Assembly: GCF_900114565.1 (NCBI RefSeq)
Contig: NZ_FOTM01000025.1
Coordinates: forward strand, 1 to 56,297
Reading direction: 5' to 3'
DNA length: 56,297 nt
Source of the DNA: Leifsonia sp. CL147
GTDB lineage: Bacteria > Actinomycetota > Actinomycetes > Actinomycetales > Microbacteriaceae
Part shown: piece after piece, positions 44,655-56,297 of the stretch
Position numbering within the stretch: the first letter of the stretch is position 1
Layout of the letters: each line of letters begins with the position of its first letter
Translations under genes and position numbers: made by a program
Notes under the pieces: model-generated
The model's input: only the letters and a program-made list of their open reading frames with translations
What the model was told of the DNA's origin: nothing
Database searches by the model: none

Positions 44655-47636
44655 TTGCGTCAGGCGCCCGCGCTCGCAAGATCCACAAGACCGCTCCAGG
44701 TTCGAAGCAACAAAGCATCGCTCGGTTCACTTCGCAGAAGCCGAACTGTACTTGTAGTGGCCGCTTTCTCGCTCTGCGTTGCGGCTCAGGCAACCGCGCT
44801 GGCACCGGCTGGTGCGGCCGGACCGCTAGTACAAGCGGATATCTCGACTGTTGCAGATTCGGCGACTGCTGACACCGAGGCCAACGCCTCCGTGATCGCG
44901 GTCAAGTTTCAGCATGACGTCACGGTCACATCCGAAACGTCGCCGACGCTGTTGACCACGGCTCTGGCTGTCGGCGGGTTCAAGCAAGAGGCGGACCAGG
45001 TCCCTTCGCGCGTGCTTCAGAACGGCGCATGGACGCCCGAGGACACGACTCTGGGTTCCGCTGTCGATGGATGGTTCAGCCCGCGCGCGGCGGCTGCATC
45101 AGTGCGTTTCTCCGCTGGCGGTACCACGCAGATGGCCCAGGTCCAAGTGCCGAGCGGGGACTGGGTAACCGAGTCGTGGCCCTACGGAGCCCTTCCGACG
45201 CCCCAAATCAGCGGATCCAGCGTGACCTATCCGAATGTCTTCCCCGACGTGGATCTTGAACTCACGGCGACGGCGCCGGGTATGTCAGAGGTCCTGGTGG
45301 TGAAGACACCGGCCGGCGCCGCGGACCCCCAACTCGCGAACGTACAGTTCGGCATCGCTGGCGCGACACTGACGGTTGCGAATTCCACCACGAAGGCCCT
45401 TCTGGCGACTACGCCTGGTGGGGCCAAGGCAGTCTCGGCCGCGCCACTGTGGTGGGATTCCGCGGGAGCCAAGGCGGGCCCGTTGGGGGCTGGTGGCGGT
45501 GATGCTCGGGCGATGGCCTATTCGAATACCGCGACATCAGTGGGTTTGAAGGTCGACTCGGTCACTGCAACGCCTAATCTCCAGTATCCGGTCTACATCG
45601 ATCCCGATTGGAGCAGCAACTCCGCATATCTGCAGGCCGATTGGTACGACGACCGTGCATACCCGAACCAGTCGTATCTGGACCCGAGTTCGGACAGCGT
45701 CGGATACGGCATCTCCGGTGGCATCGGTTACCTGTCGCGGGCGTTCTTCCAGTTCCAGACGAGCCAACTCGCCGGCAAGTACATCTCCAGTTCTCAATTC
45801 CGCGCCAACCAGACGTATTCAAACAGTTGCGATACCACCACAACGCAGTTGTGGAACTACGGTCCCTCCACGAGCCCTGGGTTCACCTGGAACCAGGAGC
45901 CGGCAGCATGGAACACCCTGCTCGACCAGAACGTGGAGGAGAACGGCGGACCGTGCGCGCCAGCCGCCAACTGGGTGGGCCTGAACGCCACCAGCGCCGT
46001 CACCGCTGCGGCAGCCGGCGGTCAGGGAAGTATTCAGCTCGGTCTGCGGTCGGCGAACGAGGGCAACAGCCTGACGCGGAAGCATTACGACTGGAACGCC
46101 CAGCTGATCACCATCTATGACACGCCGCCCAATGCGCCCTCGAACCTGAAGTTCGGGTCGGCGATCGGCAGCAAAGGCTGTGGGACGCAGACCAGCCCGA
46201 CGCCGTTGAACCCGACAGTGGCCGGGGTGAACCTGCCGATGCAGGCCGTGATCTCAGACGCCGACAGCGGCCAGACGGTCCAAGGGGTCTTCTACATCGA
46301 CGACATGAGCGTGAGTCCTATCGTAGGGACTGCGTCATACACATCTTCGCTCCTGAATCAGGGTTCGACGTTCGTGTGGAATTACACGGCGCCGACGACA
46401 GGCTCGAGCGCGTGGGTCAACGGGCACACCTATAAGTGGTACGTCGTGTCCCGCGATGACACAGGAATGGCCGGACCGCACTCGATCGACTGCTTCTTCA
46501 AGGTGTACACGACAGGTCCGTCGGCGGCGAACATCTCTGTCACGCCCACTGCCGGTCAAACTTTGGGGGACGTTGCGACCGCAGTGATCACGGATCCCAC
46601 CGATCAGGCGTCCATCCAAGGCTATGAATACTGGGTTACTCCGGGAGGCACCGTCTCGGCGGGCGACCCGCCCGTGGCCGAAACGGTCAACGCGCCCTCG
46701 CCGTGCACGGGCGGCCTGACGGTAACACCGGGCGGCAATCTTGTGGGCTTTGCCTGCCCGTCCGGGACGAACGGCCAGGCCACGATCAGCATCGGGATGC
46801 CGGACCTCACCTCGGTTTTGAATGTTGTGGCATATGACGCGGCAGGTAACGTGTCGCCGCGCATTTCGGGTTCCGATCGTGGTGCATATGCGGCCTTTTC
46901 CCTGAAGCCTGCGGCGAACCTCTCGTTTGAGACGGGCGGTCACCAATGGACGACCGACTTGGTCAGCGGGAGTCCGATACCCGATTCGAATACGACGTCA
47001 AATGCGACCAATCTTAACCTCGCTGGAGACGTGTCGGTCGCGAGCGGAAACTCACCCGTCTATTCGGGTTCGGGTACGTCGCTCGCTTTCACAGGTACCA
47101 ACGGCCAGGCGCCAACAGAAGCGAGCCCGGTTACCGGCGGCTCGCTGCTCAACTCGAGCGCGTCCTTCAGCGCGAGCGTTTGGATGGAGCCGACAACCGC
47201 GGGAGAGAGTGCCACAGCACTGTCCCTGGTCGGTCCGCAGGGGTACGGGTTCTCGCTAGAGCTCAGCCAAGGCCACCCGGTGTTCTGCATGCGCAGTCAG
47301 GTCGCGGCCACCCCGGCGCACGGTGCTTGCCTCACCGACACCGTCGACACGCCCGCGGTAAACACCTGGACGTGGGTGACCGGGGTTTATGACGCCAAGA
47401 ACCATCTGATGCGCATCCTGTTGAACGGCTCGACCCAAAGCACGGCTGTCATGATCTGGGTTGATGACACGACTGATCCGGGAGCGTCCGGACCGCTCGC
47501 GGTCGGGTCCGACGTCACTTCAACCGGTATCACAACCCAGGAGTGGGTCGGGCAGCTCGGTAGCCCCGCGGTTGTACCCGGAGTTATTGACGGAAGCCAA
47601 TTGGGTCAGCTCATGAGCGACTCTGACCCTAGCTAG
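44655..47636 (+). CDS. Secreted DNRLRE/LamG-domain protein, RHS-locus partner, 993 aa
   Basis: TTG 44655 follows GGAG. The basic N-terminus and hydrophobic segment (VLVVAAFSLCVAAQATALAP) form a Sec signal, with cleavage near residue 54. Residues about 100-300 are a beta domain. DNRLRE-like sequence follows at 310-490 (VYIDPDWSSNSAYLQADWYDD..., LSRAFFQFQTSQLAGKYI), then two Ig-like/fibronectin-like domains. A LamG-like lectin fold occupies about 790-990 (SFSASVWMEPTTAGESATALSLVG, WTWVTGVYDAKNHLMRILLNG). The gene ends 44 bases before the RHS gene. In actinobacteria such proteins precede RHS toxins and may help surface attachment or delivery; this pairing is from family knowledge. It has no sorting signal. 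Confidence 0.85.
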   Translation: MRQAPALARSTRPLQVRSNKASLGSLRRSRTVLVVAAFSLCVAAQATALAPAGAAGPLVQADISTVADSATADTEANASVIAVKFQHDVTVTSETSPTLLTTALAVGGFKQEADQVPSRVLQNGAWTPEDTTLGSAVDGWFSPRAAAASVRFSAGGTTQMAQVQVPSGDWVTESWPYGALPTPQISGSSVTYPNVFPDVDLELTATAPGMSEVLVVKTPAGAADPQLANVQFGIAGATLTVANSTTKALLATTPGGAKAVSAAPLWWDSAGAKAGPLGAGGGDARAMAYSNTATSVGLKVDSVTATPNLQYPVYIDPDWSSNSAYLQADWYDDRAYPNQSYLDPSSDSVGYGISGGIGYLSRAFFQFQTSQLAGKYISSSQFRANQTYSNSCDTTTTQLWNYGPSTSPGFTWNQEPAAWNTLLDQNVEENGGPCAPAANWVGLNATSAVTAAAAGGQGSIQLGLRSANEGNSLTRKHYDWNAQLITIYDTPPNAPSNLKFGSAIGSKGCGTQTSPTPLNPTVAGVNLPMQAVISDADSGQTVQGVFYIDDMSVSPIVGTASYTSSLLNQGSTFVWNYTAPTTGSSAWVNGHTYKWYVVSRDDTGMAGPHSIDCFFKVYTTGPSAANISVTPTAGQTLGDVATAVITDPTDQASIQGYEYWVTPGGTVSAGDPPVAETVNAPSPCTGGLTVTPGGNLVGFACPSGTNGQATISIGMPDLTSVLNVVAYDAAGNVSPRISGSDRGAYAAFSLKPAANLSFETGGHQWTTDLVSGSPIPDSNTTSNATNLNLAGDVSVASGNSPVYSGSGTSLAFTGTNGQAPTEASPVTGGSLLNSSASFSASVWMEPTTAGESATALSLVGPQGYGFSLELSQGHPVFCMRSQVAATPAHGACLTDTVDTPAVNTWTWVTGVYDAKNHLMRILLNGSTQSTAVMIWVDDTTDPGASGPLAVGSDVTSTGITTQEWVGQLGSPAVVPGVIDGSQLGQLMSDSDPS

Positions 47637-47680
47637 CGCACCATTCCCCGCATCGAACAGCGTCAAGAACAGAGGGCAGC

Positions 47681-50600
47681 ATGCGAGCACGTCGAGTTGG
47701 GCCGGCCGGTTTTCTTAAGCGTGGAGTAGGCGCGGCAGCGATCGCAGTGCTCGTGAGTGCGCTGATCACCGCTACCCCTGCGTTTGCCACAACGGAGGCA
47801 CCCAAGCCTGTGCTGGGCAAACCCGTTCCTGGTCATCACGCCAACAGTGTCGCTTCCGCGACCGCCGCGCCTTCTTCGAACAGTGTTAAGCCCGACCTGA
47901 AGAGCCTGCCGAAGGCGGGCACGTACACGGTTGCAACAAAGCCAGATGGACGCCGAACGGCGATGAAGTTCGCGGGGAAGCGGTTTGGTGATCTGCTCGG
48001 GGCGTGGCAGGCGGTCGGCGCTACAGGAATTGAACTTGCACCAGCCGACGTCGGCTCACACTCCGGCCCTTCGACCAGCGTGAAATCCGTGACGGCCCAA
48101 GTTCTTTCCGCGTCCCAGGCAAAGAAGTTCGGGCTCTCCGGGCTGGTGATCCAGCTCCAGCGCTCGGACTCGGCTCGCTCCCAAGCGACGACCGCCATCC
48201 GAATTCCTGCAACGCTTCTCAACTCACTGTTTGGCGCAGACTACGCCTCCCGCATTCACTGGACCGAGCTGCCCGCGACCAAAGCGAGCTCCTCACCAAA
48301 AACCAGCGCACTTTCCTCCGTGGCCGACCCGTCGAGCAAATCGGTCGTAACCGCGGCCCAGGTCTCCGCAACGCCCATGCTTCTCGCGGCGACCGCCGCT
48401 CCCTCATCGACTGCGGGGACCGGCACTTTTACCGCCACCTCACTGAAGCCCTCCGACACCTGGGACGTCAGCGCCCAAACGGGCGACTTCTCTTGGACCT
48501 ACCCACTGCGGGTGCCGCCGACTGCTGCCGGGCCCGCTCCCGATCTGTCGCTGGCGTACGACTCGCAGTCGATCGATGGCGAGACAGCCTCCACCAACAA
48601 TCAGCCCTCATCGGTTGGAGATGGCTGGCATATCACCGGATCCGGATTCATCGAACGCACGTATGTTCCTTGCGCATTAGACGATGGCTCCTCGGGTCCC
48701 GTCACCACCTCCGGCGACCTGTGCTGGAAGACCGACAACGCTACCCTGGACCTCAACGGTCACACCGGCCAGCTCGTCCAAATCGGTACGAGCGGTAACT
48801 GGCGGCTGCTGCACGACGACGGCACGCGCATTCAGCACACGAGCGGCGCGTCCTGTGGGAGCAACGGAACCTACGACAGCGACTGCTGGACCGTCACCAC
48901 AGCAGACGGCACCCGCTACCTCTTCGGCGCAAACCCGTCCTCGAACTCCACCTGGACGGTCCCGGTGTTCGGGAACGACCCGGGGGAGCCGTGCCACGCC
49001 GCGACGTTCGCCGCGTCATCGTGCAGTCAAGGATGGCGCTGGAATCTCGACGAGGTCATCGACACAAACGGGAACGCCGAAGCCTTCACCTACAATGCGC
49101 AGACCAACGAGTACGCGCTAAATGGCACCACGGCGACACCGTATGTCCGCGGCGGCGAACTCGCATCTATCCAATACGGTGCGCCCAGCTCGAGCATCCA
49201 CACCGCAAACACACCCTCCCAAATCGTGTCCTTCGGGTACGACAGCTACGGCCGATGCAGCGACGCGAGTCACGCGAATTGCACCGCAGAGCCAGTTTCA
49301 GGAAGTGCCGTCACCCCAGCTGTCCCCGCGAACTACCCGGATATTCCGTACGACCAGAACTGCACCACCGGAACGTGCTCAACGCAGCTCTCGCCCACCT
49401 TCTGGTCCAATTCGATGCTCGACACGATCACCACCTCCGTGTGGTCCAGCACGGCCTACTCCACCGTCGACACCTGGACGCTTGGCCACTCGTTCCCGGA
49501 CCCCGGAGACAGCAGCAGTGCTGCCCTCTGGCTCACATCAATCACGCACACCGGGCACGTAGGCTCTACCACCGGCCTGAGCGAACCGCCCACAACCTTC
49601 ACCGGACGCACGCTTCAGAACCGCGTCTACGCCATTGACGGCGAACTGCCCCTGAACCGGTACCGGATCTCCGGGATCACCTCCGCTCTCGGCGCACAGA
49701 CAACGGTGGGCTACTCATCACCACAGTGCACCGCCGCGCAGGTTTCCGGGATCGAGGCGAACCCGTGGTCGAACAACGAACTGTGCTTCCCTGAATGGTG
49801 GACCCCGCAGGGCGGCACCCAGCGAGAGGACCTCTTCAACAAGTACGTCATCAATAGCGTCGTCAGCAACCCGACAACAGGGGGAAGCAACGACGTCATC
49901 CAACAGTCGACCTACACTTACGGCACCCCGGGCTGGCGATACGACACCTCACCGTTGATCCCGGACGCCCAGCGCACCTGGTCAGTCTTCGCCGGCTTCA
50001 ACACCGTCAACGTCCTCACCGGTGACCCGACGATTCCAGCCCAGGAACACGAGAACGACTACGTGTACTACCAGGGCCTCGACCAAGACCGGGCCAACGC
50101 GTCGGGTGGAACGAAGACCGTTGACGTCACCGGCACGACGATCCTGGATTCGCTGTGGTTCGCCGGCAGGGTCTACTCACAAAAGACCCTCAACGGCGCT
50201 GCAGGGTCCCAGCTCTCGCAAGCGATCCACACGCCATGGGTGTCCGCTGCCACCGCGACCGACTCCAGCGGGACTGCCTACCTGACCGGTGACGCGCAGA
50301 CGGTCGTAACCACACCGAACTCCACCGGCACCGCCACCACGACCACGAACACAACGTTCGACCCCACCTATGGATTCGTCACGCAGGTGGACACTGAGCA
50401 CTCCGACGGCGCCACAAACACCTGCCAAACAATCACGGCGACCGCCCCGAATTTGACCGCCTGGATCATCGGCGCGACCGCCGAGAGCGTCACGGTCGGC
50501 CAGAAGTGCGGAACCAGTCCCACCTTCCCTGCCGACGCGATCTCAGACACCCGAACGTTCTACGACGGCAGCAGCACCCTCGGTGCGGCTCCCACAATCG

Positions 50601-53600
50601 GGAACGTGACCTCAACACAGGTGGCAACCAGCTACACCAACGGTCAACCGCAGTTCACGACCGCATCCACGACAACCGTGGACAGCCTCGGACGCCCGCT
50701 CGCGCGAACGGACGTCCTCGGCCACACGACCACCACGACTTACACGCCCACAGCGGGCGCTGCCCACGCCGCAGCCAACAGCTCACAGTCGGTCGTGAAC
50801 AACTCCGCACCGGTTTCCTGGACCACGTCGGTTCAGTTCAACCCGGCACTCGGCCTGGAGACCTCCGCCACAGATCAGAACGGACTGGTCACCAGCGCCA
50901 GCTACGACGCGCTCGGCCGGCGAACCGGGGTCTGGCTACCCGGGAACGCCCAAAGCACGAACCCCACCAACCCGAACACGGCATACACTTACGCCCTTTC
51001 CCAGACCGCCGCATCATCGGTCGAGACCACGACGTGGACTTCGAACTCGACCCTGAGCAGTTACACCCTGTATGACGGACTCGGCCGAGCAGTCCAGACA
51101 CAATCCCTCTCACCTGCCGGTGGCACCATCGTGACCGACACCGGCTACGACGCCAACGGTCAAGCCAACTTCACCCAAGGCCCCTATTGGACGACCTCCG
51201 TGACCCCGTCGAGCACGGTCTTCATCGCCAACAACCCACAGAACATCCCAACCTCGCTCGTCACGACCTTCGACGGCGCCGGCCGGACAACCGCTTCGAT
51301 CACCAACAGCTACGGCACGGAACAGTTCCGCACCAGCTACGTCTACCCGTTCACCAACGAAACCGACACCAACCCCCCGACCGGCGGGACACCCACGAGC
51401 GTCTTCACGAACTCTGCGGGACAAAAGACGAAGCTCGTCCAATATCAGGCCGCGTCTGTATCGACCACGGCCCCGACCGACACCACGGCGTACACCTACG
51501 ACGCGCGCGGAAACATGTCCTCCATGACCGACCAGGCCGGTAATGCGTGGAGCTGGACATACGACGTCCTCAACCACCAAACCTCGGCCACCGACCCGGA
51601 CACCGGGACGACCTCAACCAGCTATGACCTAGCGGGCAACCTACTCACCAGCACCGATGCTCGCGGGCAACAACTGTCGTACACCTATGACCCGCTTAAC
51701 CGGAAACTCGCCGAATACGCTGGCGGTACTACGGGGAGCCTCCTTGCAGCGTGGACGTACGACACCGTCGCCAACGCAACCGGTCAACTCGCCTCTTCCA
51801 CCAGCTACCAGGGATCCGTGCCCGGAACTCCCGGCGCCGCCTACAAGGCGACGGTCAACGGGTACGACAAGGCGTACAAGCCCACCGGAACCACACTGAG
51901 CATTCCCGCCGGAGCTCCCGCATTCGCCGGCACAAGCTACACCACATCGAACATTTACAACCGCGACGAAAGCCTCGCCGCGGAGATCCTGCCCGCCGAA
52001 GGCGGCCTCGCCTCCGAAACTCTCCACTTCACCTACAACACCACCGCTCAACTCAGCGGGCTGCACGGCTCAACCTCCTACGGCGTCGTCTCATTCACCG
52101 GGATCGGGCAAACAGCGCAGATCCAGAAGGGAACCAGCGTTCTCGACACGACAAGCTTCGGCTACGACGCGGCCACTGGAGCGGTCACAGGAATCCAGGA
52201 AACCGAGTACAACGGCACCGCATACTCCACCCCAGCCACCCTCACGTACGGCCGCGACCACAGCGGAAATGTCACCAGCCTGAAAAACGCAGGGATCTCC
52301 GCCACTGACACCCAATGCTTCAACTACGACTACCTGAAAAACCTCACCCAAGCCTGGACGCCCACCGACGGCAACTGCACAACCGCAGCATCCGCAAGCA
52401 ACATCGGGGGGCCCGCTCCTTACTGGGAGAGCTTCAATGTCGATGACGCGACCGGCAACCGGACCCAAGAAGTCCAGCACGGCACCTCGGCCAGTGCGCC
52501 ATCGACGACGAACACATACTCGTACCCGGCAGCCGGCGCAGCCAAACCACACGCCATCACGACAGTAGCGGCCACCGGTGGGACCACTTCGACATCCAGC
52601 TACAGCTACGACGCAGCCGGTAACACTGCAACGCGCCCCGGGCAGACCCTCACGTTCGATGCAGCGGGCAAACTCGCCTCAGACAATGTCTCATCGCACA
52701 CTCAATCGAACATCTACGACCCATCCGGGAACCTCCTGCTTCAAACAGATCCAACCGCGGGAAGCACCCTCTTCGTCGGGGATACCCAACTCCACGTCAC
52801 ACCCGGGACGACAACCGCCTCCGCAGTACGTGACTACAGCATCAGCGGCCAGCTGGTTGCCGAACGAACAACCCAGGCTGGTGTCACTGGGTCCGTTTTG
52901 AACTTCGTCGGAACCGACGCCAACGGAACCCCGTACCTCGAGATCAACAACACAACAGCGGCCACGACCGAGCGGTATTTCGACCCATACGGAAACGCCC
53001 GCGGTACGTCAGCCAGCTGGTCAAGCACCAACACCTACCTCAACGCGCCACAATCGACCACAACGGGTCTAAGCATCGTTGGAGCCCGCGCGTACGACCC
53101 CACCATCGGGAAATTCCTCTCCGTCGATAGCGTCCTGGCTCCGGACAATCCGATGCAGAACAATGGCTACACCTACGCCCTGAATAACCCGATTACCCAA
53201 GCCGATCCCTCCGGCAACGAACCCACGAACCCCGACCCTAGCTGCAATACCGCCGCGTGCCGCAACGCCTACTACGGCGCACCAGCCAACGGCGACGGAA
53301 CCGACATCTCCAACGCTCCACCTCCCGCGGGTAACGGCGGATCCGGTCCGAGCCAACACCAATCTTCCGACAGCTCGGGCGACGCCAATCTCTTGCACGC
53401 TCCCACGAACGCTAGCCAGTTCTTCAGCTTCTATACGTGGTCGCCTTTGCCTGACAAGTTCAAGAACGGCCCTGTCGATTGGACCGGACTGGGGGAAGCC
53501 GCTGGTACGGCGGTCGTGGTGGGTGGAATAGCACTCACGGTGGTCGGGTGTATTGCGGCGACCGAGGGGGTCTGCGGCGCATTCCTTGTCGAAGAAGGCG

Positions 53601-53977
53601 GCGCAGTCACCGAAATCTCGACTGAGCAGTCGGTAGCTGAAATCAGCTCGATACTCCAGGAACACACCGACGCCGCCGTGGCCAGATTTGACGCCGGGGA
53701 CATTGCGTTGTCTGCCAAGCAGGAGCTGGCTGCCGGCAAGAACGGCAATCTATACGAAATGTTCAGAGGGCAGGTCCTCGACAGTGCGATCAAGAACTCT
53801 GTCGAGGGCGACTCTCGTCTGAGCCTTTGGATATCCAAATCTGGCGAATACGGCCCCGACTTTCACGACGTGAATACAAATACTTGGTGGGACATCACCA
53901 CTCCCGGTAGGTTTCAAGCGCACTTGAACCAGTACAGCGACCCGTTCGGTCAGGGAATAGGCTTGTTCACGAAATGA
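47681..53977 (+). CDS. RHS-repeat polymorphic toxin with Sec signal and C-terminal toxin domain, 2098 aa
   Basis: ATG 47681 begins a Sec signal (FLKRGVGAAAIAVLVSALITATPAFA). An SpvB-like/N-terminal RHS shell lies at about 245-800, followed by many YD repeats (YDALGRRTGVW, YDPLNRKLAEY, YDLAGNLLTS). The RHS core GARAYDPTIGKFLSVD...NNPITQADPSG ends at about residue 1844; in this family it processes off the toxin tip. The variable tail (1845-2098) has a Gly/Ser linker, a hydrophobic helix at about 1942-1973 and a final 95-aa domain. That domain has E2026 in NLYEMFRGQ, D2060 in YGPDFHDV and D2071 in WWDITTPGRF. This layout fits a divergent PD-(D/E)xK nuclease fold, with Thr where Lys is usual. No T6SS or T7SS gene is near. 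Confidence 0.88.
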   Translation: MRARRVGPAGFLKRGVGAAAIAVLVSALITATPAFATTEAPKPVLGKPVPGHHANSVASATAAPSSNSVKPDLKSLPKAGTYTVATKPDGRRTAMKFAGKRFGDLLGAWQAVGATGIELAPADVGSHSGPSTSVKSVTAQVLSASQAKKFGLSGLVIQLQRSDSARSQATTAIRIPATLLNSLFGADYASRIHWTELPATKASSSPKTSALSSVADPSSKSVVTAAQVSATPMLLAATAAPSSTAGTGTFTATSLKPSDTWDVSAQTGDFSWTYPLRVPPTAAGPAPDLSLAYDSQSIDGETASTNNQPSSVGDGWHITGSGFIERTYVPCALDDGSSGPVTTSGDLCWKTDNATLDLNGHTGQLVQIGTSGNWRLLHDDGTRIQHTSGASCGSNGTYDSDCWTVTTADGTRYLFGANPSSNSTWTVPVFGNDPGEPCHAATFAASSCSQGWRWNLDEVIDTNGNAEAFTYNAQTNEYALNGTTATPYVRGGELASIQYGAPSSSIHTANTPSQIVSFGYDSYGRCSDASHANCTAEPVSGSAVTPAVPANYPDIPYDQNCTTGTCSTQLSPTFWSNSMLDTITTSVWSSTAYSTVDTWTLGHSFPDPGDSSSAALWLTSITHTGHVGSTTGLSEPPTTFTGRTLQNRVYAIDGELPLNRYRISGITSALGAQTTVGYSSPQCTAAQVSGIEANPWSNNELCFPEWWTPQGGTQREDLFNKYVINSVVSNPTTGGSNDVIQQSTYTYGTPGWRYDTSPLIPDAQRTWSVFAGFNTVNVLTGDPTIPAQEHENDYVYYQGLDQDRANASGGTKTVDVTGTTILDSLWFAGRVYSQKTLNGAAGSQLSQAIHTPWVSAATATDSSGTAYLTGDAQTVVTTPNSTGTATTTTNTTFDPTYGFVTQVDTEHSDGATNTCQTITATAPNLTAWIIGATAESVTVGQKCGTSPTFPADAISDTRTFYDGSSTLGAAPTIGNVTSTQVATSYTNGQPQFTTASTTTVDSLGRPLARTDVLGHTTTTTYTPTAGAAHAAANSSQSVVNNSAPVSWTTSVQFNPALGLETSATDQNGLVTSASYDALGRRTGVWLPGNAQSTNPTNPNTAYTYALSQTAASSVETTTWTSNSTLSSYTLYDGLGRAVQTQSLSPAGGTIVTDTGYDANGQANFTQGPYWTTSVTPSSTVFIANNPQNIPTSLVTTFDGAGRTTASITNSYGTEQFRTSYVYPFTNETDTNPPTGGTPTSVFTNSAGQKTKLVQYQAASVSTTAPTDTTAYTYDARGNMSSMTDQAGNAWSWTYDVLNHQTSATDPDTGTTSTSYDLAGNLLTSTDARGQQLSYTYDPLNRKLAEYAGGTTGSLLAAWTYDTVANATGQLASSTSYQGSVPGTPGAAYKATVNGYDKAYKPTGTTLSIPAGAPAFAGTSYTTSNIYNRDESLAAEILPAEGGLASETLHFTYNTTAQLSGLHGSTSYGVVSFTGIGQTAQIQKGTSVLDTTSFGYDAATGAVTGIQETEYNGTAYSTPATLTYGRDHSGNVTSLKNAGISATDTQCFNYDYLKNLTQAWTPTDGNCTTAASASNIGGPAPYWESFNVDDATGNRTQEVQHGTSASAPSTTNTYSYPAAGAAKPHAITTVAATGGTTSTSSYSYDAAGNTATRPGQTLTFDAAGKLASDNVSSHTQSNIYDPSGNLLLQTDPTAGSTLFVGDTQLHVTPGTTTASAVRDYSISGQLVAERTTQAGVTGSVLNFVGTDANGTPYLEINNTTAATTERYFDPYGNARGTSASWSSTNTYLNAPQSTTTGLSIVGARAYDPTIGKFLSVDSVLAPDNPMQNNGYTYALNNPITQADPSGNEPTNPDPSCNTAACRNAYYGAPANGDGTDISNAPPPAGNGGSGPSQHQSSDSSGDANLLHAPTNASQFFSFYTWSPLPDKFKNGPVDWTGLGEAAGTAVVVGGIALTVVGCIAATEGVCGAFLVEEGGAVTEISTEQSVAEISSILQEHTDAAVARFDAGDIALSAKQELAAGKNGNLYEMFRGQVLDSAIKNSVEGDSRLSLWISKSGEYGPDFHDVNTNTWWDITTPGRFQAHLNQYSDPFGQGIGLFTK

Positions 53978-54927
53978 CGATGGTCGAGCTGCGGAAACGT
54001 TGGGATACTGCCGAAGGTCGAGCGCTTGCCGCTGCGGTATCCGCGTGGCTGTATGGGCGCGCGCGTCGCCCGCGAAATCTGGACTCGATCGATGGGCGCC
54101 ACGATCTGCGCGGGCTCGCGATGCACCATCTGCAAAGCCAGCGACCCGCGACCATCTACGGGACCGTGGAGAACGCGCGTTGGAAAGACTTGGACCTCCG
54201 TGGCGCGAGCTTGGACCACATGCGGTGGTCGTCGGTGGAAGTCGGGGGATGCCTTTTCGACGGTGCTTCGCTCGATGGCTTGCGTGTGTGGGAATCGTCG
54301 ATCGAACACACGTCCTTCACGCGTGCGAAGCTAGAGGGGGCGCTCATCGGCGCGGGCGAGAAATACCCACGCAACCAGTGGCGACACGTCAGTTTTCAGC
54401 GCGCGAAGATGCGTGACGCCATCATTCACAATGCCGACCTCGACGATGTGGATTTCAGTAACGCCGATCTGAAGGGCGCTTCGTTTCGCCATTCGAGGCT
54501 CGAAGGAATCCGTTTCGCCGGTCCGCTACGGGATGTGCTGTTCGAGAATAGAGACTTCGTCACCGTGACCAGCGTCGGGCATCCGATGCGCTCGGTGGAT
54601 TTCAGCGACTCCGAGTTTTACGATGTCGAGTTCCGCGGTTCACATTTCGATTCCGTCACGTTCCCCACATCCCAAGAGCACCTGCTTATCCCTCGCTTTC
54701 CGTCGGCTGCCCGGTGGGTCCTGCACCGGCTCGAGGGTGACGACTCCGAGTGGTCACGAATGCTCACGGCGATGCTCAGCGGTGGGCTGGTCCGTCTCAG
54801 CGCGGAGGATTCCACCGGCTTCTTTATCAGGGACGACTTCGTTCGCTGGGAAGGCGAAGGGTTCGCCGACTTCGTATTCGATCTGCTCCGCAGTGCCTCT
54901 CTCGCGATAGCTGGCGAAGCTCCTTGA
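53974..54927 (+). CDS. Pentapeptide-repeat protein, predicted immunity protein, 317 aa
   Basis: ATG 53974 overlaps the toxin stop (ATGA), the classical toxin-immunity junction. Residues about 65-230 consist of A(D/N)LxG-type five-residue repeats: DLDLRGASLDHMRWSSVEVGG, FDGASLDGLRVWESSIEHTSFTRAKLEGA, then NADLDDVDFSNADLKGASFRHSRLEGIRF and SVDFSDSEFYDVEFRGSHFDSVTF. This is a right-handed quadrilateral beta-helix, which in MfpA/Qnr proteins mimics B-DNA. The last 80 residues are a helical cap with W and F residues. No signal peptide is present, so it acts in the cytosol, as expected for protection from an incoming toxin. Immunity is inferred from position and family; direct binding to the toxin is untested. 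Confidence 0.8.
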   Translation: MTMVELRKRWDTAEGRALAAAVSAWLYGRARRPRNLDSIDGRHDLRGLAMHHLQSQRPATIYGTVENARWKDLDLRGASLDHMRWSSVEVGGCLFDGASLDGLRVWESSIEHTSFTRAKLEGALIGAGEKYPRNQWRHVSFQRAKMRDAIIHNADLDDVDFSNADLKGASFRHSRLEGIRFAGPLRDVLFENRDFVTVTSVGHPMRSVDFSDSEFYDVEFRGSHFDSVTFPTSQEHLLIPRFPSAARWVLHRLEGDDSEWSRMLTAMLSGGLVRLSAEDSTGFFIRDDFVRWEGEGFADFVFDLLRSASLAIAGEAP

Positions 54928-55045: not shown

Positions 55046-55226
55046 GCAGAGCGATATTCACCGCCGCTGCGGGCTGCTGCTCCTGGGTATCGCGTTTGTT
55101 CTTATCGCGGGTGGCCTCCTTATGTACTCGCGAACACGACCCCTCAGCCAATGCCTTCCTAGTGTTGGAGAGATTGCTTCGATAGCGACTGGCGTCAGTC
55201 GATCGGATGTGGCCAGCCGGCGGTGA
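55038..55226 (+). CDS. Possible single-pass membrane protein, 62 aa
   Basis: GTG 55038 overlaps the stop of the preceding short frame. The chain begins with a short polar part (LKQSDIHRRC) and has one good membrane helix, GLLLLGIAFVLIAGGLLMY, followed by SRTR. The end runs into the convergent gene by 32 bases. It lacks a clear ribosome binding site. It could be an accessory immunity-type membrane protein, as small membrane proteins often follow toxins, but no family resemblance is seen. Confidence 0.35.
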   Translation: MLKQSDIHRRCGLLLLGIAFVLIAGGLLMYSRTRPLSQCLPSVGEIASIATGVSRSDVASRR

Positions 55227-55722
55227 GGGCGAAAAGCTCCGGTGTCAGCGGGCGCGCACCGTCGGATTCATGTTCGCGGACGAAGTCACGGACTTCGTCT
55301 CGGGACGAGGCGTCGGAAGCAGGGAACACAAGCAGCGCCTCCCGATGCGGGACTGAGGCAACCAGTTTGGTCCCCAGATGCGGGCCGAGTATCGACAACA
55401 AGGACGGCAGGATCAAAACGCTCGACGCTGCCCAGTGACCGCCAAATAGCGCGAACGGCATCCCTCCCGGACCAGTCGGGAAAACGCGCGAACCGATCGC
55501 TCCGGATCTGAGCAAGGCATCGAGGTTGGCGATCGCCTCAGGCAGACAAACCTCAATACCTCCACCGCCAGAGGCCAGGCGTTCAGGTCCAGCAGAAGCG
55601 ACCACCCCGTCGTGATCCTCCACTATCTGAACAAACACGCCATGGCCGATGCCGCGCGACAGCGAGGCGTCGCTCGTTCCGGGGTACGCATCCGTCACAA
55701 GGTATGGGTAGATGAGCGACAT
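55195..55722 (-). CDS. Hypothetical protein, possibly DUF1444/YtpQ-like, about 175 aa
   Basis: The frame is open to 55797; ATG 55722 (MSLIYPYLVTDAYPGTSD) is the likelier start, though no Shine-Dalgarno is obvious. Features: VQIVEDHDGVVASAGPERLASGGGGIEVCLPEAIANLDALL, FPTGPGGMPFALFGGHWAASSVLILPSLLSILGPHLGTKLVASVPHREALLVFPASD. The order 'leader helix, surface loop, aVPHRE-lLVFP' resembles DUF1444-type proteins (YtpQ family) found among immunity genes and stress regulators. The resemblance is weak. It lies beyond the toxin locus on the opposite strand and may be an orphan immunity or unrelated. Confidence 0.5.
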   Translation of the reverse strand: MSLIYPYLVTDAYPGTSDASLSRGIGHGVFVQIVEDHDGVVASAGPERLASGGGGIEVCLPEAIANLDALLRSGAIGSRVFPTGPGGMPFALFGGHWAASSVLILPSLLSILGPHLGTKLVASVPHREALLVFPASDASSRDEVRDFVREHESDGARPLTPELFALTAGWPHPID

Positions 55723-55799
55723 CCCGCGATTCTCGACGTTGTGGGAAATGTTCGCGGCACGACACGCGGAGGTGCTACGGCGATCCGAGAGCACCAAGG

Positions 55800-56091
55800 T
55801 GACTACTTAGCCACGTGGAAGGTCTTGTTGTTGACGATCAGGAGGACTATTCAACGCCGGGGCGCACGTGACACTTGGTTACACGAATGCAAGATCAGCA
55901 AGCGACCTTGCCGGGTCATTCAGAACCGTTAGCGCCTCAGCAGGGGATTCCTTCGCTGCTGTGGGTGGAACGTAAGTAGTGCCCCGTAATGTGGTGTAGC
56001 GCGGTGGCCGGCTCGTCGTTTCGGACGTGGGCGCGGTCACCGTGTGATCCTTCGAGAAGTCTCTTACCTCCACTCGAAAGGCATCATCACG
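55800..56091. other. Intergenic and left flank of the IS256-type element
   Basis: No gene is supported in 55800-55970. From about 55975 the sequence (GTAGTGCCCCGTAATGTGGTG onward) may be the left inverted end of the insertion sequence; the right end lies outside the window, so this cannot be confirmed. A CGAAAGG ribosome binding site precedes ATG 56092. Confidence 0.35.
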
Positions 56092-56297
56092 ATGACCGCA
56101 CTTCACATTGTCGACCCTGCGAGCGTGCTCGCTGAAGCCTTGACCGACGCGTCGGGCGGATCTGATGCGCAGCCTGTTGCAGACCACGATCAATGCGCTC
56201 CTCTCCGCGGATGCTGACGCCGTCGTCGGCGCGGAATGGGGCAAGCCCAGCCCCGACCGCACCGCGCAACGCAATGGCTACCGGCACCGCGACCTCG
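56092..56297 (+). pseudogene. IS256-family transposase, 5' part, frameshifted and cut by the window edge
   Basis: ATG 56092 reads MTALHIVDPASVLAEALTDAS and then falls into a stop. If the frame shifts by one base near 56152-56159, reading continues as DLMRSLLQTTINALLSADAD, then GKPSPDRTAQRNGYRHRDL to the edge. This second part is the classic start of IS256-type (mutator family) transposases. The most likely explanation is a single extra G in the GGGCGG run, either a true frameshift mutation or a read error. If true, the copy is inactive unless frameshifting occurs. It marks the right boundary of the accessory region. Confidence 0.8.

What the first reader, a model, noticed from the sequence alone, without database searches (positions are those of the whole stretch)
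44655..54927. RHS toxin with DNRLRE/LamG partner and a pentapeptide-repeat immunity protein overlapping its stop
The toxin tip has a D...D-x-T motif set consistent with a divergent restriction-type nuclease, and the overlapping downstream protein is a beta-helix of the B-DNA-mimic type. A DNA-mimic as the antidote of a DNase tip would be an elegant mechanism: the antidote could occupy the DNA-binding face of the toxin. Both proteins overlap, the usual toxin-immunity sign.
Basis: partly seen in the sequence, partly recalled or inferred. Interest (0 to 1): 0.85.

Follow-up and report, generated by a model that had tools for sequence, protein, structure and literature searches.

The report
RHS toxin with pentapeptide-repeat immunity protein
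An actinobacterium carries a large contact toxin whose exchangeable tip looks like a divergent DNA- or RNA-cutting enzyme, and the next gene makes a square-spiral 'pentapeptide' protein that most likely neutralises it; a related tip and the same kind of partner also sit side by side in a Rhizobium secretion locus, so the pairing looks real, although the idea that the partner imitates DNA is not supported by its charge.

The parts
44655..47636 (+). DNRLRE-domain partner protein, 993 aa, 44 bp upstream of the RHS gene
   Evidence: ORF; NF033679 DNRLRE 7.3e-11; gap; a similar partner (419 identities in a 1032-column alignment) precedes the paralogous RHS gene on contig C20; no LamG family detected
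47681..53977 (+). RHS protein, 2098 aa: hydrophobic N-terminal segment near residue 18, RHS repeats, RHS-associated core 1767-1845, hydrophobic segment 1942-1960, C-terminal tip
53627..53974 (+). toxin tip (RHS residues 1983-2098); conserved D2034, K2038, P2059-D2060, W2069-x-D2071-x-T2073, H2081, Y2085
   Evidence: boundaries from BLASTP to the Agromyces and Rhizobium proteins; conservation; numbering; AF2 model pLDDT 91.4
53974..54927 (+). pentapeptide-repeat protein, 317 aa, probable cognate immunity protein: N-terminal helices, quadrilateral beta-helix about 38-239, C-terminal helical domain

Best explanation
This is a polymorphic RHS toxin operon. A DNRLRE surface protein and an exported RHS shell present or carry a C-terminal tip of about 115 residues (inferred from WapA-type RHS proteins). 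The tip works like a nuclease of the restriction-endonuclease type: predicted fold of that kind, a PD...D-x-T site, plus a helix acid/lysine (D2034/K2038) and an invariant His (H2081) where the usual motif lysine is missing (fold predicted, activity inferred; not filed as a PD-(D/E)xK member, as the lysine test failed). The overlapping PRP is its cognate immunity protein and most likely binds the tip directly and covers its active site (inferred). The PRP goes with this tip family rather than with RHS delivery: diverged copies of the tip on an RHS reading frame of Agromyces and on a type VI PAAR-like effector of Rhizobium are each followed by a PRP gene (shown).
Against: Only three tip-PRP pairs seen. 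The Agromyces RHS frame is only 519 aa long. The Rhizobium and actinobacterial PRPs are similar mainly in the repeats; outside them the C-terminal match is borderline (hhalign score 21.7 against a best of 19.4 among 100 shuffles tried and 7.6-15.6 for seven other PRPs; by hmmsearch two shuffles of 500 ranked above it). The PF00805 genome scan misses the Agromyces PRP (0 matches in G289) though Pfam scores the protein, so PRP base rates are lower bounds. Foldseek gives the tip no PDB match below E 0.86, and an unrelated chain has the same top VIA Z (Rep15, 4.4). The motif lysine is absent. The window tip is acidic (pI 4.6), as are two other tips (4.6, 5.7), unusual for a nucleic-acid enzyme; three are basic (9.8-10.8). 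No interaction or toxicity data.
Confidence: 0.65

Rival explanations
1. DNA- (or RNA-) mimic antidote: the PRP beta-helix imitates a nucleic-acid duplex and occupies the substrate groove of the tip, as MfpA and Qnr do on gyrase.
For: Same fold as MfpA/Qnr/AlbG; MfpA and Qnr are described as gyrase-directed DNA mimics (PMC8145042 and PMC10886550, passages); predicted tip fold fits a nuclease.
Against: Beta-helix of low net charge in the 10 family members measured (-11 to +4; Rhizobium +4 with a +6 tip; window -7 with a -8 tip); no Qnr or MfpA model reaches its cut-off (best 37.5 of 460 bits). Net charge does not exclude one acidic face, and no MfpA/Qnr charge was computed as a yardstick.
Confidence: 0.12
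2. Target protection: the PRP shields the target (for example gyrase) rather than binding the toxin, as is thought of the microcin B17 immunity protein.
For: The microcin B17 operon encodes a PRP immunity protein similar to MfpA (PMC10886550, passage); that it acts on gyrase is recalled.
Against: The tip has a nuclease-like predicted fold rather than that of a gyrase poison; PRP and tip occur together in two phyla; no Qnr/MfpA model reaches its cut-off.
Confidence: 0.08
3. Delivery accessory: the PRP is a chaperone or adaptor like pentapeptide TvpB of type VI systems.
For: Class III Tvp systems have pentapeptide-repeat TvpB proteins (PMC13373197, passages), and the Rhizobium locus has DUF2169 and DUF4150/PAAR-like proteins.
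Against: The window and Agromyces toxins are RHS proteins of actinobacteria. The Rhizobium DUF2169 protein shows only DUF2169 and no pentapeptide domain, which fits Class I, described as including only TvpA. A PRP 87% identical sits among 13 annotated features without DUF2169 in R. sophoriradicis. The other RHS contigs listed in the own genome have no PF00805 match.
Confidence: 0.07
4. The tip is not a nuclease: an enzyme or inactive domain that happens to share an alpha/beta order, with the PRP still its immunity protein.
For: Threonine replaces the lysine in 6 of 6 tips; structure matches are weak and mixed.
Against: PD...WxDxT with a helix acid at the expected places; lysine replacement is known in a PD-(D/E)xK CDI toxin (His in CdiA-CT E479; PMC9086364, passage); half of the listed VIA rows are this fold (membership recalled).
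Confidence: 0.25

Closest known systems
RHS/WapA polymorphic toxins of Gram-positive bacteria
   Same: Exported RHS shell, variable C-terminal tip, DNRLRE domain in the system (WapA-CT1 of Streptococcus suis has a DNRLRE domain; passages of PMC12704120)
   Different: Here the DNRLRE domain is on a separate upstream protein, and the WapA tips described in those passages resemble NucB and colicin E5
Tox-REase-7 with HEAT immunity (Zhang 2012, PMC3482391)
   Same: Restriction-endonuclease-like tip on RHS with a repeat-protein neighbour; such a pair exists in the same genome on contig C20 (the HEAT match is below its cut-off)
   Different: Different tip family (no Pfam match, T in place of K) and a pentapeptide beta-helix instead of HEAT repeats
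PD-(D/E)xK CDI toxins (CdiA-CT TA271, YPIII, Bp1026b, E479)
   Same: Exchangeable toxin tip with restriction-endonuclease-like core; E479 also lacks the usual lysine
   Different: The tip profile has no sequence match to any PDB chain at E<=10
Pentapeptide-repeat proteins MfpA, Qnr, AlbG, microcin B17 immunity
   Same: Quadrilateral beta-helix; some are self-protection factors
   Different: MfpA and Qnr act on gyrase; this family has conserved N- and C-terminal helical parts, low net charge, and linkage to a toxin tip
T6SS DUF4150/PAAR-like effector of Rhizobium leguminosarum pRLN1
   Same: Same tip family and a PRP gene directly downstream
   Different: Type VI locus instead of RHS; PRP similar mainly in the repeats

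Membership tests
Polymorphic RHS toxin system | RHS repeats and RHS-associated core before a variable C-terminal tip | tested here: met
   PF05593 and TIGR03696 above cut-off; identity to the C20 paralog is 41-69% per 100-residue bin from 101 to 1900 and 20-22% after
Polymorphic RHS toxin system | Tip occurs on other backbones | tested here: met
   Rhizobium DUF4150 effector and Agromyces RHS frame
Polymorphic RHS toxin system | Cognate immunity gene directly downstream | tested here: inconclusive
   Position and recurrent linkage fit; neutralisation not testable here
[quoted passage not shown]
PD-(D/E)xK nuclease superfamily | D...(D/E)-x-K signature | tested here: not met
   PD...D-x-T in 6 of 6 tips; no lysine at that place
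PD-(D/E)xK nuclease superfamily | Metal-dependent nucleic-acid cleavage | not testable with these tools
   needs the purified tip
Tox-REase-1 to -10 | D-[EQ]xK site | tested here: not met
   signature as stated in PMC3482391 (passage); tip has DxT
Tox-REase-1 to -10 | Match to the Pfam models of these toxins | tested here: inconclusive
   only DUF6019 at E 0.17, almost wholly before the tip; Pfam holds Tox-REase-7, the other nine were not checked for presence
Pentapeptide-repeat superfamily | Repeat profile above cut-off and quadrilateral beta-helix | tested here: met
DNA-mimic PRP (Qnr, MfpA) | Family model above cut-off | tested here: not met
   best 37.5 bits against 460; MfpA 22.9 against 360
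DNA-mimic PRP (Qnr, MfpA) | DNA-like (acidic) surface | tested here: inconclusive
   net charge of the beta-helix -11 to +4 in 10 family members; surface potential not computed
Tvp class III accessory (TvpB) | T6SS with a pentapeptide-fused DUF2169 protein and TvpC | tested here: inconclusive
   Rhizobium DUF2169 protein has no pentapeptide domain; TvpC, and T6SS genes in the window genome, were not searched

The most novel reading that the evidence does not exclude
A family of pentapeptide beta-helix antidotes, shared by RHS systems of actinobacteria and a type VI locus of an alphaproteobacterium, disarms a lysine-less nuclease tip by lying in its substrate groove as a nucleic-acid mimic.
Probability: 0.12. 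Interest if true: 0.85.

Novelty: new variant of a known kind. Interest (0 to 1): 0.58.

Why it matters
Repeat proteins named as polymorphic-toxin antidotes in the 2012 survey are HEAT, ankyrin and leucine-rich types (PMC3482391, passages); a pentapeptide beta-helix would add a new fold. The pair occurs in two phyla and two kinds of toxin with a tip family that matched no Pfam or NCBIfam model here, so it defines a candidate toxin/immunity family that is directly testable. It would also give a function to some PRPs found near toxins, which are annotated only by their repeats.

Tried and rejected
DNA mimicry as the leading mechanism: set back by charge. LamG in the partner: no Pfam or PDB match. 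Membership in Ntox10: only the part of the Sulfurovum protein before the tip matches it (residues 35-113). Defence-system membership: no PADLOC match for RHS or PRP; in NCBIfam the Hailong effector HalA gives the PRP 14.1 bits against a cut-off of 250.

More relatives: the tip was found in 2 of 394 (class, single sequence), 1 of 396 (phylum), 2 of 396 (order) and 2 of 376 (family) genomes, own genome counted each time, otherwise only Agromyces. PRP in 3 of 398 family and 1 of 28 genus genomes, own counted. One locus in genome contigs, again Agromyces; none in viral contigs; none in phages, searched with the Rhizobium tip only; plasmids gave Rhizobium and Sulfurovum. PRP in plasmids: none for the window PRP, three Rhizobium records for the Rhizobium PRP.

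PDB sequence search with the tip profile: none. BFVD: best E 0.07, unnamed. The VIA list re-ranks Foldseek's own candidates only, so fold families absent from it are not excluded.

Homology of the Rhizobium and actinobacterial PRPs outside the repeats: tried with HMMER and hhalign, borderline. Context of P0004, P0022 and P0005-P0011 could not be read. A complex model of tip and PRP could not be run with these tools.

Literature: ten searches ran, seven of them bearing on PRP immunity. No listed paper, by its title, abstract start or the passages I read, describes a PRP as immunity to a polymorphic toxin; the lists (20 of 207; 15 of 95) were capped, and 55 and 66 listed 12 of 13. 'pentapeptide' occurs 0 times in PMC3482391 (first 300,000 of 357,715 characters held; 0 also in the listing); 'immunity' occurs 0 times in the PRP review PMC8145042. 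No paper was read whole. The library lacks most subscription papers.
Full report
What is there. No LamG domain was found in the first protein. The RHS body is 62.8% G+C against 69.8% for the window, and the tip 54.9%, which would fit recent arrival (inference). The genome is of the same family as Agromyces, so most likely Microbacteriaceae.

The operon type. The same genome has a second operon of the same build on contig C20: a DNRLRE-type partner, a 2097-aa RHS protein and an overlapping small gene with the same ATGA junction. Its tip is Tox-REase-7 (8.8e-12) and its neighbour has HEAT-like repeats (5.9e-5, below the curated cut-off), a pairing listed in the 2012 survey of polymorphic toxins (PMC3482391, passages read). 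The two RHS proteins are 41-69% identical per 100-residue bin from 101 to 1900 and 20-22% after. This serves as an internal control for reading the window operon as toxin plus immunity.

The tip. No Pfam or NCBIfam family covers it. A protein search with residues 1975-2098 found one relative among 95 candidates, P0004, an RHS protein 76% identical in the tip; its body is 89-99% identical per bin up to residue 1600 and 69-84% after, so the tip region diverges faster. Wider searches found Agromyces subbeticus (a 519-aa RHS reading frame), Rhizobium leguminosarum plasmid pRLN1 (a DUF4150 PAAR-like effector behind VgrG-like (by eye) and DUF2169 genes) and, more distantly, an RHS remnant of Sulfurovum mangrovi. 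The Rhizobium protein matches the window protein in the tip only. Twelve columns are invariant in all six tips: G, V, D, PD, W-x-D-x-T, H, Y, G-x-G. The helix acid D2034 and K2038 are shared by five of six.

Why it is probably immunity. In 3 of 4 tip loci with visible neighbours the next gene is a PRP, at -4, 25 and 0 bp; the exception is the most diverged tip, in an RHS remnant. PRPs are rare neighbours: in the own genome PF00805 matches lie on seven contigs (C13, C15, C22, C24, C28, C32, C35), RHS repeats on six among the 100 matches listed (C7, C13, C17, C20, C36, C38), and only C13 has both; on the 1.1-Mb Rhizobium plasmid the two PF13599 matches are in this one gene. The PF00805 scan is not complete: it misses the Agromyces PRP, which Pfam scores as a protein. 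PRP homologs also occur without the tip, as orphan immunity genes do: in G530 behind another RHS gene, a transposase (by eye) and other small genes, and in R. sophoriradicis, split over two frames, beside a PAAR gene in a type VI island. A third such place, a 69-residue match in R. gallicum, was not followed up beyond finding no tip there. So 3 of 6 PRP loci seen have the tip. Against this: three pairs are few, and the Rhizobium PRP is related to the others mainly through its repeats.

DNA mimicry. The beta-helix carries -7 in the window and -11 to +4 across ten members (median -2); the Rhizobium one is +4 against a +6 tip; the window tip is -8 overall, -2 in its core. A rod meant to imitate DNA for a DNA-binding tip should be clearly acidic, so I rate this at 0.12. 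Caveats: net charge does not show single faces, and I did not compute Qnr or MfpA as a yardstick. Direct capping of the active site by the PRP or by its C-terminal helical domain is the simpler view (inference).

Rivals. A type VI accessory role like TvpB (PMC13373197, passages) does not explain the actinobacterial RHS cases, and the Rhizobium DUF2169 protein lacks the pentapeptide part. Target protection like that of the microcin B17 immunity protein (PMC10886550, passage) remains possible but needs a gyrase-type target.

Novelty. PMC3482391 names HEAT, ankyrin and leucine-rich repeats as repeat-type immunity (passages) and does not contain 'pentapeptide' in the text held. Seven relevant searches (some lists capped) gave no PRP immunity to a polymorphic toxin in what I read; the microcin B17 PRP is the nearest precedent. 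I file this as a new variant of a known kind: a new tip family and a new immunity fold class within polymorphic toxin systems.

Noticed in passing
L017 (own genome C20: 84000-98000), 2638-12565 -: Paralogous DNRLRE-type/RHS operon with a Tox-REase-7 tip and an overlapping HEAT-like gene.
   Followed up: partly
window 56090-56297: Start of an IS256-like transposase (recognised by eye, no family search) read in two different frames at the contig end; the window is the whole contig C13.
   Followed up: no
window 55195-55797 -: 200-aa ORF without a Pfam match, facing the PRP gene.
   Followed up: no
L015 5704-7799: Run of small genes with a PRP behind an RHS gene and an IS3-like transposase (by eye): looks like a polyimmunity locus.
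   Followed up: partly
L025 4938-5871: R. sophoriradicis PRP 87% like the R. leguminosarum one, split over two overlapping annotated genes, directly after a PAAR gene and without the tip.
   Followed up: partly
L022 3629-4396: Sulfurovum RHS remnant with a distant relative of the tip, not annotated as a gene; the next annotated gene is a small hypothetical protein, not called a PRP.
   Followed up: partly
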